A DNA stretch of 64,000 bases from Bradyrhizobium sp. ISRA430 (GTDB taxonomy: Bacteria > Pseudomonadota > Alphaproteobacteria > Rhizobiales > Xanthobacteraceae). The stretch's first letter is position 1. Every line of letters starts with the position of its first letter. This document shows, piece after piece, positions 6,664 to 48,958 of the stretch. The position numbers were made by a program, and so were the translations under genes. The notes under the pieces were generated by a model, which saw only the letters and a program-made list of their open reading frames with translations, made no database searches and was not told where the DNA came from. The stretch is taken from assembly GCF_029909975.1 (NCBI RefSeq), contig NZ_CP094516.1, positions 5,952,001-6,016,000 of the forward strand. The letters run 5' to 3'.

Positions 6664-6765
6664 GTCGTCCCGGGGCGCGCATAGCGCGAGCCCGGGACCC
6701 ATAACCACAGGATCGAGTTTGGCGAAGACTCGTGGGTTGCCAGTCTCGCGCCACAACTCCTCCCT
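6664..6765. repeat. Dispersed repeat, GTCGTCCCGG family
   Basis: The block starts with a hairpin (GTCGTCCCGGG...CCCGGGAC) followed by CCATAACCAC, the same ends as the inverted repeats flanking the GIY-YIG gene at 41.3-41.7 kb. Its tail (TTTGGCGAAGACTCGTGG onward, about 50 bases) is nearly repeated at 48895-48942. It lies between the convergent PepSY and modC genes. Confidence 0.75.
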
Positions 6766-40955: not shown

Positions 40956-41076
40956 TGCGCTGGCGTAATTTTATGCAAGGAATGGGCCGGTTTGGAAACC
41001 CGGGAGCCCACGGAGAAACCTGAATTCGGTGCTAGATTGCGCGCAAATTCGGCCATCAGTGTGGAGGAGGCGCCCC

Positions 41077-41310
41077 ATGAGACTGCTGATCGAAATCGCC
41101 GCTGCAGCCTTGCTCGTCGTCTGCATCACCGCGTCCAGCGCCGCCTTCGCCGCCGGCAAACCGGGCCGCAGCGCCGATGCCTTAAGCTGCGCCGTCTCGC
41201 TCCCGCAAAACGCAACGCCAGCCGTGCGCTGTGCCGCCATCAAGCGTCAATGCGGCGGCAAGTTTTACGCGAGCGCATGTGGCGACAGGCTGATGTCTGC
41301 GGTGAGGTGA
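41077..41310 (+). CDS. Small exported cysteine-rich protein
   Basis: The 77-residue product has a signal peptide (MRLLIEIAAAALLVVCITAS, cut near AFAAGK) and a mature part of about 50 residues with four cysteines (LSCAV, VRCAA, RQCGG, SACGD). These could form two disulfides in the periplasm. GGAGGAGG about 7 bases before the ATG at 41077 fixes the start. Function unknown. It lies just left of the palindrome-flanked GIY-YIG unit. Confidence 0.78.
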   Translation: MRLLIEIAAAALLVVCITASSAAFAAGKPGRSADALSCAVSLPQNATPAVRCAAIKRQCGGKFYASACGDRLMSAVR

Positions 41311-41335
41311 GGGTGATTGGTGTAACGAAGATGAT

Positions 41336-41368
41336 GTCGTCCCCGCGAAGGCCGGGACCCATAACCAC
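41336..41368. repeat. Left 33-bp inverted repeat of the GIY-YIG unit
   Basis: It begins GTCGTCCCCGCGAAGG and ends CCCATAACCAC. It matches the reverse complement of 41696-41728 at 32 of 33 positions. It also contains its own small hairpin (GTCCCCGC / GCCGGGAC). It ends 5 bp from the stop codon of the nuclease gene. Confidence 0.9.
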
Positions 41369-41373
41369 GGCTG

Positions 41374-41661
41374 TCAGAGAAGATGGGACAAGTCGCGCCA
41401 ATCGGGATGATCCCCCTCGATCAAACGAATCTTCCAGTCGCGATGCCATTCATTCAACGCCTTCTCGCGTGCGATCGCTTCGGCTGGCGAGGCGTATGTC
41501 TCGACGTAGACGAGTCGCGTCACGCCGTACTTCTTGACAAACTTCGAGCCTCTTCCTGAACGATGCAACGCAAGCCGACCGCTAAGGTCGTGGCAAATGC
41601 CGATGTACAGTGTGCCGTAGCGTCGGCTCGCTAAAATGTAGGCGTAATACGGGGCATTCAT
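41374..41661 (-). CDS. GIY-YIG nuclease-family protein
   Basis: The 95-residue protein is a single GIY-YIG domain of the UPF0213/YhbQ type: YYAYILASRRYGTLYIGICHDL (5-26) is the two-part signature, LSGRLALHRSG (26-36) carries the catalytic-type Arg29, and SPAEAIAREKALNEWHR (58-74) the Glu. It is predicted to cut DNA. Open frame extends upstream to 41808, but I chose the ATG at 41661, where the domain starts. The gene sits between two 33-bp inverted repeats (41336-41368, 41696-41728) with only 5 and 34 bp to spare, so it looks like part of that element. Confidence 0.88.
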   Translation of the reverse strand: MNAPYYAYILASRRYGTLYIGICHDLSGRLALHRSGRGSKFVKKYGVTRLVYVETYASPAEAIAREKALNEWHRDWKIRLIEGDHPDWRDLSHLL

Positions 41662-41695
41662 TGCTGGGCGCCCATTTCCGAAACGTCTGAAAGCA

Positions 41696-41728
41696 GTGGT
41701 TATGGGTCCCGGCCTTCGCCGGGACGAC
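41696..41728. repeat. Right 33-bp inverted repeat of the GIY-YIG unit
   Basis: It forms a perfect hairpin by itself (GTCCCGGC, loop CTTC, GCCGGGAC) and pairs with 41336-41368 at 32 of 33 positions. Partial similarity extends another 11 bp inward on each side. A related single copy is at 6664-6708. Confidence 0.9.
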
Positions 41729-41843
41729 ATTGTAGAAGCATTGGAACGAATTAAGAACACTTTAGCAAGTCTTTGATATATCATTGTGATTCGGTGCGTT
41801 GCCGACACAATATCTAGGGTCTGCCAGACTTCGCGAGGACTAC

Positions 41844-42275
41844 ATGTCCACCATTGCCTTCCATCAATTCGCCCTCACCCGGATCGCCGATTTCGCGCGC
41901 TCGTTGTCGCGCCTGCATCAGGCAGCGCGGCGTTACGCGGTCGATGACGACCAGTTCGACCGCGAGTTCAACGCGGTGTGCCAGTCGATCTGGGGCTACA
42001 CGGTCGACGATATCAGCGACGATCTGTTTTCGGTCGAGGATCACCTGTTCCTCGACACGCTGGATGAGGCGCATGCGCGCATCTTCGCGGCCGAGCAGGG
42101 CTATGACCTCGTCGACGACCAGGGCATGCTGACCGACTGGTGGGGCTTTTGCTGGATGATTCTGGCTGAGAGGCGCGGCCTGCTGACGCCGGAAAACCGC
42201 GCCGCCGCGCGTGCCGCGATCGAGGAGAAATATCTGGCGGCGCCGAACGTGATCGGGGTGATCATCGGGCGGTAA
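41844..42275 (+). CDS. Conserved-looking hypothetical protein, acidic
   Basis: I do not recognise this 143-residue protein. It is soluble and acidic, with a helical N-terminal half and a Trp-rich centre (GMLTDWWGFCWMILAERRGLL) ending in a helix and VIGVIIGR. Codon use is like that of its neighbours, which supports a real gene. The ATG at 41844 has GCGAGGAC upstream. It lies right of the GIY-YIG unit, and an 80-bp dispersed repeat follows its stop by 13 bp. Confidence 0.7.
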   Translation: MSTIAFHQFALTRIADFARSLSRLHQAARRYAVDDDQFDREFNAVCQSIWGYTVDDISDDLFSVEDHLFLDTLDEAHARIFAAEQGYDLVDDQGMLTDWWGFCWMILAERRGLLTPENRAAARAAIEEKYLAAPNVIGVIIGR

Positions 42276-42288
42276 CGCAAACATCCTT

Positions 42289-42369
42289 CGTCATTGCGAG
42301 CGAAGCGAAGCAATCCAGAGTGTCGCCGCGGGAGCATTTCTGGATTGCTTCGCTTTGCTCGCAATGACG
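42289..42369. repeat. Dispersed inverted repeat (ATTGCGAGCG family, copy 4)
   Basis: Arms of about 30 bp (left arm CGTCATTGCGAGCGAAGCGA) around a GGGAGCA-containing centre, between a plus-strand hypothetical gene and the convergent DUF2865 gene. Confidence 0.88.
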
Positions 42370-48856: not shown

Positions 48857-48958
48857 GTCGTCCCGGACAAGCGCAGCGCCGGGCAGCGCGGAGAAGTTTG
48901 GCGAAGACTCGTGGTTGCCGTCTCCCGCCACAACCTCTCCCTGGGGGTATGGGTCCCC
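48857..48958. repeat. Dispersed repeat, GTCGTCCCGG family (copy with 50-bp tail)
   Basis: It starts GTCGTCCCGG, carries the tail TTTGGCGAAGACTCGTGG...CCACAACCTCTCCCTG that is nearly identical to 6719-6763, and ends with GTATGGGTCCC. It occupies the gap upstream of polA. Confidence 0.7.

What the first reader, a model, noticed from the sequence alone, without database searches (positions are those of the whole stretch)
41336..41728. GIY-YIG nuclease gene enclosed by 33-bp inverted repeats: possible minimal mobile or REP-maintaining unit
A 288-bp gene for a single-domain GIY-YIG protein sits inside a 393-bp block bounded by 33-bp inverted repeats that match at 32 of 33 positions, with weaker similarity a further 11 bp inward. 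The right repeat is itself a perfect hairpin (8-bp stem). Single relatives without the gene occur at 6664-6708 and, more diverged, at 48857 and 63279. The situation recalls REP palindromes maintained by RAYT transposases, but with a different nuclease fold, so the nuclease may cut or move these palindromes.
Basis: partly seen in the sequence, partly recalled or inferred. Interest (0 to 1): 0.75.

Follow-up and report, generated by a model that had tools for sequence, protein, structure and literature searches.

The report
Nuclease gene inside its cognate repeats
A small DNA-cutting enzyme gene sits between two copies of a short hairpin-forming repeat that is scattered through the same genome, and relatives in many kinds of bacteria show the same pairing, so the enzyme is probably what acts on and keeps up these repeats.

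Summary
Window 41336-41728 is a 393-bp unit: a 95-codon GIY-YIG nuclease gene (minus strand, 41374-41661) between two outward-tagged CGTC-type REP palindromes. The repeat is dispersed (62 matches up to 3 mismatches in the 8.56-Mb genome, reversed-pattern control 0), often as ~120-bp head-to-head dimers. The four short GIY-YIG genes found in this genome each have inverted repeats of a different dispersed family nearby. In 71 named loci, 68 have such a REP within 450 bp (sliding windows 249 of 3633); 41 have the tag-out pair (15 of 3633). In the genus this class sits mainly at one address, but gene and both REPs change together between strains with ~95% identical flanks. Genomes with the gene class hold a median 47 exact REPs, those without 0 (30 and 68 genomes); IS200/RAYT-type genes make no difference. 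I read it as a dedicated single-strand/hairpin nuclease of CGTC REPs, working like RAYTs with another fold, exchanged as a cassette, not a free transposon. From memory it belongs to the recently described Ssn nucleases (paper not held). Cleavage and dispersal are inferred.

The parts
41336..41728 (.). whole unit: REP - GIY-YIG gene - REP, 393 bp
   Evidence: arm-to-arm length 368-404 bp in the 44 slices of the same locus that have gene and inverted repeat
41336..41368 (+). left CGTC-tagged REP, tag outward, one mismatch in the stem
   Evidence: similarity extends inward to 41378
41696..41728 (-). right CGTC-tagged REP, tag outward, perfect 8-bp stem and 4-nt loop, CCA tail
41374..41661 (-). 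GIY-YIG nuclease gene, 95 aa
   Evidence: PF01541 E 5.3e-12; confident model, pLDDT 94.8; nearest solved fold UPF0213 1zg2 at E 4e-4, then 1ywl and Slx1 at E above 0.01; purifying selection, median dN/dS 0.09 over the 251 pairs with dS 0.1-1.2
41662..41730 (-). in-frame extension: an ATG at the outer end of the right REP would translate the REP itself (MSSRRRPGPITT...) into the protein; probably not the real start (inference)
   Evidence: sequence
41735..41843 (+). conserved upstream region of the right neighbour, used as anchor of the orthologous site
6664..6708 (+). related solo CGTC REP with a different stem-loop, same tag and tail
   Evidence: by eye

Best explanation
The gene encodes a dedicated, sequence-specific GIY-YIG nuclease of CGTC-tagged REP palindromes, and the two REPs around it are its own target sites. 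Shown: gene and REP occur together in many taxa; REP type follows nuclease lineage; genome-wide REP number goes with presence of the gene class. Inferred: the enzyme recognises the REP as single strand or hairpin (tag CGTC, stem, CCA tail) when DNA is single-stranded in replication, repair or uptake, nicks it, and the repair or copying that follows spreads or maintains REP dimers, as RAYTs are thought to do for GTAG REPs. The gene is kept at a chromosomal address and is replaced from time to time, together with both ends, by a divergent allele.
For: Own genome: 62 REP matches; 13 tag-out neighbour pairs, 11 of 112-141 bp, one of 212, and the 393-bp one that holds the gene. Four short GIY-YIG genes, four inverted-repeat families with 62, 30, 34 and 226 genomic matches, reversed-pattern controls 0. 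Genus: IR score >=20 in 29 of 30 full-flank loci, largest shift control 14 of 120 (best-matching loci only); >=18 in 34 of 40 further loci (no shift control). Phylum draw: 16 of 24 full-flank loci >=20, 12 of 20 outside the genus, 0 of 96 controls. Named loci: 33 of 71 against 10 of 3643 overlapping sliding windows; REP nearby 68 of 71 against 249 of 3633, tag-out pair 41 against 15. REP type follows the gene, not the flanks: partial Mantel r 0.76, 0 of 2000 permutations, 41 loci. REP counts 47 against 0; no effect of Y1 transposases. Purifying selection.
Against: No biochemical or mobility data. The association of gene and REP number is over related genomes and not corrected for phylogeny, and the gene list was made by hand. 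8 of 68 genomes without the gene class hold >=10 exact REPs, and 5 of 30 with it hold fewer than 10; G050 has the gene but its two flanking REPs are its only exact copies. In G004, G044 and G070 the flanking REP type (GTCGCC...) has no exact copy elsewhere, while the genome has 47-54 copies of the other type, so flanking and dispersed repeats can differ. 30 of 71 named loci lack a tag-out pair by the finder, and 10 have tag-in pairs (16 of 3633 controls). The best inverted repeat around L003 of the own genome is tag-in, and the copies near it are mixed in orientation. Many named loci are metagenome bins, so their taxon labels are uncertain.
Confidence: 0.65

Rival explanations
1. Ssn-type control of DNA uptake or recombination: the nuclease cuts incoming or exposed single strands at the repeats and so tunes transformation and gene exchange; REP spread is a by-product or has another cause.
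For: Recalled (not held) work on the Neisseria Ssn nuclease; the unit lies in a swappable site with high synonymous divergence (median dS 1.61 against 0.46 for the neighbour), which fits frequent exchange.
Against: Does not by itself explain why REP copy number goes with the gene class or why the ends co-vary with the gene. Not exclusive of the best explanation.
Confidence: 0.2
2. A minimal autonomous transposon with the REPs as terminal inverted repeats, moved by its own GIY-YIG enzyme.
For: Gene plus matching ends behave as one cassette; units with one REP type (CCCTGCGAACGCAGGG) are found in flank clusters of 20 and 8 loci and in singletons.
Against: The window's class is at one address in the cluster of 30 loci; no excess of target duplications. 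GIY-YIG domains are not known to me as DNA transposases (recalled). Copy number of one class within one genome was not tested systematically.
Confidence: 0.08
3. REPs are spread by RAYT/IS200-type enzymes or other transposases and only accumulate next to these genes, for instance as terminators.
For: Y1_Tnp genes occur in 59 of 98 genomes.
Against: No Y1_Tnp at E 0.001 in the own genome; REP counts do not differ with Y1 presence (medians 1 with, 3 without, p 0.33), and 15 genomes with the GIY-YIG gene and no Y1 hold 2-90 REPs; other positions in the same loci are rarely flanked. Other transposase families were not tested.
Confidence: 0.05

Closest known systems
Ssn, site-specific single-stranded nucleases of the GIY-YIG superfamily (recalled: Chenal, Veyrier and colleagues, Nature Communications 2025; not held, nothing of it seen here)
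   Same: single-domain GIY-YIG protein; a repeat in many genomic copies as cognate sequence; thousands of homologues with their own sequences (as recalled)
   Different: here the repeat is the CGTC REP, arranged as tag-out dimers, and the gene lies inside such a pair; whether the paper makes the REP link could not be checked
CGTC-tagged REPs (Di Nocera et al. 2013, PMC3733652; abstract, passages and section 6 seen)
   Same: tag, 8-bp stem, 4-nt loop, CCA tail, head-to-head dimers, reported from Bradyrhizobium; Neisseria dRS3 counted among them
   Different: [quoted passage not shown] here a nuclease gene is regularly found among them
RAYT / REPIN (GTAG REPs)
   Same: nuclease gene flanked by REPs of its own type, dispersed dimers (features recalled and from PMC3733652 passages)
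   Different: HUH tyrosine transposase there, GIY-YIG here; CGTC tag instead of GTAG
UPF0213 proteins (PDB 1zg2, 1ywl) and Slx1
   Same: nearest solved folds
   Different: 25-28% identity to the UPF0213 structures; whether UPF0213 genes lie in repeats was not tested

Membership tests
CGTC-tagged REP | CGTC/TGTC tag, 8-9 bp stem, 4-5 nt loop, CCA tail | tested here: met
   base before GTC is C or T in 97% of unit ends; definition from PMC3733652 section 6. The finder itself requires GTC, stem and CCA.
CGTC-tagged REP | high copy, head-to-head dimers | tested here: met
   62 matches, 26 of them in 13 tag-out pairs; the eight single copies fetched mostly have a diverged partner, by eye
RAYT/REPtron | Y1_Tnp (HUH, catalytic tyrosine) domain | tested here: not met
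   protein is PF01541; no PF01797 match in the genome
Ssn nuclease family | stand-alone GIY-YIG domain | tested here: met
Ssn nuclease family | cognate repeat present in many copies and near the gene | tested here: met
   definition recalled
Ssn nuclease family | site-specific cleavage of single-stranded DNA only | not testable with these tools
   needs purified protein
Ssn nuclease family | sequence relationship to Neisseria Ssn | not tested
   no Neisseria Ssn sequence was fetched
Insertion sequence / transposon | target-site duplication | tested here: not met
   no excess for 2-6, 8 and 9 nt at offsets 0-3
Insertion sequence / transposon | copies at scattered sites | tested here: inconclusive
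   73 loci: flank clusters of 30, 20, 8, 4, 3 and eight singletons

The most novel reading that the evidence does not exclude
GIY-YIG nucleases are the missing dedicated enzymes of CGTC REPs in bacteria at large: a second REP-dispersal system, evolved independently of RAYTs and built on an Slx1-like single-strand/hairpin cutter, in which gene and repeats co-evolve as a cassette and several such pairs coexist in one genome.
Probability: 0.45. Interest if true: 0.8.

Novelty: new member of a known kind. Interest (0 to 1): 0.62.

Why it matters
CGTC REPs (which per PMC3733652 include Neisseria dRS3 and Rickettsia RPE-4 and RPE-6) were left without an enzyme. A nuclease gene that sits among them in many taxa, co-varies with them and goes with their copy number makes the question testable with one protein and one oligonucleotide. 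It would also tie the Ssn nucleases to REP biology, and a genome with four such genes and four repeat families offers built-in specificity controls.

Tried and rejected
Tried: RAYT as the mobiliser (no Y1_Tnp match in the own genome, no relation to REP counts). Target duplications (no excess). Rfam on window 41000-42100 (no match to E 0.1). NCBIfam (no match to E 0.001). Free transposon (main address conserved). Protein search: 7995 of 8000 scored candidates at E <= 1e-10, 120 listed, those with a name called GIY-YIG nuclease family protein, GIY-YIG nuclease or putative endonuclease; it told nothing on function.

Literature: ten searches, of which I saw the listings only (capped at 20-25 rows where more papers matched), plus passages of PMC3733652, PMC12306157 and PMC1564403. 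No listed title or abstract joins GIY-YIG to REPs; no held paper has both dRS3 and GIY-YIG; five hold GIY-YIG and a word beginning with 'repin', all with other subjects by title. The Ssn paper is recalled only; a lookup of a recalled DOI, which may be wrong, failed. So I cannot say that the REP link is unpublished.

Weak points of my own analysis: the genus name Bradyrhizobium is my guess from resemblance; no call names the genome. In one search the left-neighbour peptide used as anchor was translated out of frame and served only as a sequence anchor, so gap lengths are approximate; 37 of 92 slices had no left anchor there. In one search my text rule labelled L025 and L070 type A although they are type B; the Mantel test does not use labels, but the A/B means and lists do. 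In one search two genomes at the locus (G053, G065) were counted as without the gene; one search repeats the test with them moved. The list of genomes with the gene was put together by hand, and the counts were typed into scripts. Searches list or keep only the best matches. Rows dropped before counts: L005 (690-aa frame), L006 (same as L004), L013, L017 and L026 (short contigs), six short contigs, 9 of 80 without room. One search's 40 loci are the next 39 in order of E-value plus G075 again; L240 and L266 repeat genomes. Slices include at least three genomes twice (L008/L076, L022/L059, L033/L058); the 40 slices were picked by hand. In one search, L086 and L087 repeat L024 and L001 and one pair had an impossible length. 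In one search saturated distances were set to 9. Searches ended in script errors after printing; one search repeats 19.

Full report
What is there. Window 41336-41728 is a 393-bp unit: two 33-bp inverted repeats (32 of 33 identical; 45-nt arms at 93%) around a 288-bp minus-strand gene for a single-domain GIY-YIG protein. The right repeat is a perfect 8-bp hairpin with a 4-nt loop, the left has one stem mismatch. Each repeat has a GTC tag outside, a palindromic stem, and a CCA tail inside, which is how Di Nocera et al. 2013 describe CGTC-tagged REPs (PMC3733652; abstract, passages and section 6 seen). That paper reports CGTC REPs in Bradyrhizobium, says they are predominantly head-to-head dimers, and concludes that they apparently lack a dedicated transposase.

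The repeat is dispersed. The 28-mer core has 62 matches with up to 3 mismatches in the 8.56-Mb genome, and the reversed pattern has 0. Thirteen neighbouring pairs are tag-out: eleven of 112-141 bp, one of 212, and the 393-bp one with the gene; the only two tag-in neighbours within 1.5 kb span over 1.3 kb. The short pairs share an interior that is not the gene's interior (by eye), so they are REPIN-like dimers and not simple deletion products of this unit.

The short GIY-YIG genes here are flanked. One search found four of them plus a 690-aa frame, presumably UvrC. Each of the four has a strong inverted repeat nearby, of a different family. Those families have 62, 30, 34 and 226 matches in the genome, controls 0. 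The one at L003 is the least clean: its best inverted repeat is tag-in and the copies near it are mixed in orientation.

It is general. In the genus (98 genomes), 29 of 30 best-matching loci with full flanks, the four own ones included, score >=20, and the largest of 120 shift controls is 14. Of 40 further loci 34 score >=18; two of the six low scorers, L253 and L266, were read by eye and have unlike or decayed REPs on both sides. In a draw of 299 genomes of the phylum, 178 have a match; of the 30 loci kept 24 had full flanks, 16 of these score >=20 (12 of 20 outside the genus), controls 0 of 96 with maximum 13. Among 80 named loci (the best of at least 578), labelled Planctomycetes, Nitrospirae, Anaerolineae, Patescibacteria and others besides Proteobacteria and many of them metagenome bins, 71 had room on both sides: 33 score >=20 against 10 of 3643 overlapping sliding windows in the same loci. 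A motif-based finder gives any REP within 450 bp in 68 of 71 against 249 of 3633, tag-out pairs 41 against 15, tag-in pairs 10 against 16; REPs elsewhere in these loci are 88 in 707 kb, and shuffled sequence gave 1 in 210 kb. A common form is CGTCATTCCCGCGAAGGCGGGAATCCAG; PMC3733652 equates Neisseria CGTC-1 with dRS3.

Gene and repeats are one cassette at an address. Window-like units of the genus share flanking DNA, so they sit at one locus (cluster of 30 loci). At that site 48 of 92 slices have the gene, 44 of them with a strong inverted repeat; of the slices without the gene most have no left anchor, so the synteny itself differs. Genomes with about 95% identical flanks can carry units with only 71-75% identical genes and another REP type on both ends, for example L014/L020 and L080/L083; the window and L033 have 94% flanks and 72% genes. 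Over 41 loci the REP tracks the gene with flanks held constant (partial Mantel 0.76, 0 of 2000 permutations). Median synonymous divergence is 1.61 for the gene against 0.46 for the right neighbour, larger in 98.8% of 496 pairs; codon bias of the neighbour could add to this. The gene is under purifying selection (median dN/dS 0.09 in 251 pairs).

Repeat number goes with the gene. Exact copies of the two main REP types: median 47 in 30 genomes with the gene class, 0 in 68 without; 25 of 30 against 8 of 68 have ten or more (p 3e-12, not corrected for phylogeny, counts). Taking off the flanking pair leaves a median of 45. Of the eight exceptions, G043 has a remnant of the gene at the locus (L057) and G084 lacks it there (L197), so repeats may outlive it. 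Y1 transposases, the RAYT superfamily, have no match in the own genome and their presence makes no difference (p 0.33). A third REP type has, in three genomes, exact copies only as the pair around the gene; in a fourth, G074, it has 23. So the two ends can change together without the dispersed copies following.

Structure. AlphaFold2 gives pLDDT 94.8. The nearest solved fold is UPF0213 1zg2 (28% identity, the only match below E 0.001); Slx1 follows at E 0.05 and more. Slx1 is a branched-DNA nuclease (titles), which suits action on hairpins, but this is analogy.

Mechanism. Shown: association, specificity by lineage, copy-number link, selection. Inferred: recognition and nicking of the REP as single strand or hairpin and copy spread through repair. 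Unit lengths cluster near 340-420 and 500 bp, in 103 of 174 entries with a tag-out pair within 300 bp, and no excess of target duplications was detected, which speaks against an ordinary cut-and-paste element. Some sites that lack the gene keep half a REP ending at the loop (L208, L230) or two half REPs fused into one hairpin (L060) (by eye): a hint, with small numbers, of breakage at the hairpin.

Place among known things. It works like RAYT/REPIN but is not a RAYT. From memory, not from any call, a 2025 Nature Communications paper describes the Ssn family: GIY-YIG nucleases specific for single-stranded sites, with a Neisseria repeat in hundreds of copies and many homologues with their own sequences. 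If that recollection is right, this is a member, and what may be new is the CGTC-REP dimer link, the cassette exchange, the copy-number relation and four gene-repeat sets in one genome. I rate novelty as new member of a known kind and interest 0.62.

Noticed in passing
L060 (G096), L197, L205, L208, L225, L230, L074: At the same site these slices lack the GIY-YIG gene; L060 has a single fused hairpin in its place, the others hold another shared segment of some 200 bp that may be a small ORF (by eye, not checked), L208 and L230 with a half REP ending at the loop.
   Followed up: partly
L057 (G043): Truncated GIY-YIG remnant next to the same other segment, in a genome still rich in REPs (69 + 7 exact copies).
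   Followed up: partly
G004, G044, G070: The REP type GTCGCCCCGGCG... has exact copies only as the two flanking the gene: concerted change of both ends, unexplained.
   Followed up: no
window 41662-41730: The REP is open in frame with the gene and preceded by ATG, so automatic annotation may add a REP-encoded N-terminus (SSRRRPGPIT).
   Followed up: no
own genome, for example window 42290-42316: The family GTCATTGCGAGCGAAGCGAAGCAATCC has 226 matches up to 3 mismatches in the genome; among the listed ones, many are head-to-head pairs with starts about 50 bp apart.
   Followed up: no
L128, L172, L173: GIY-YIG loci whose best inverted repeats are tag-in, not tag-out.
   Followed up: no
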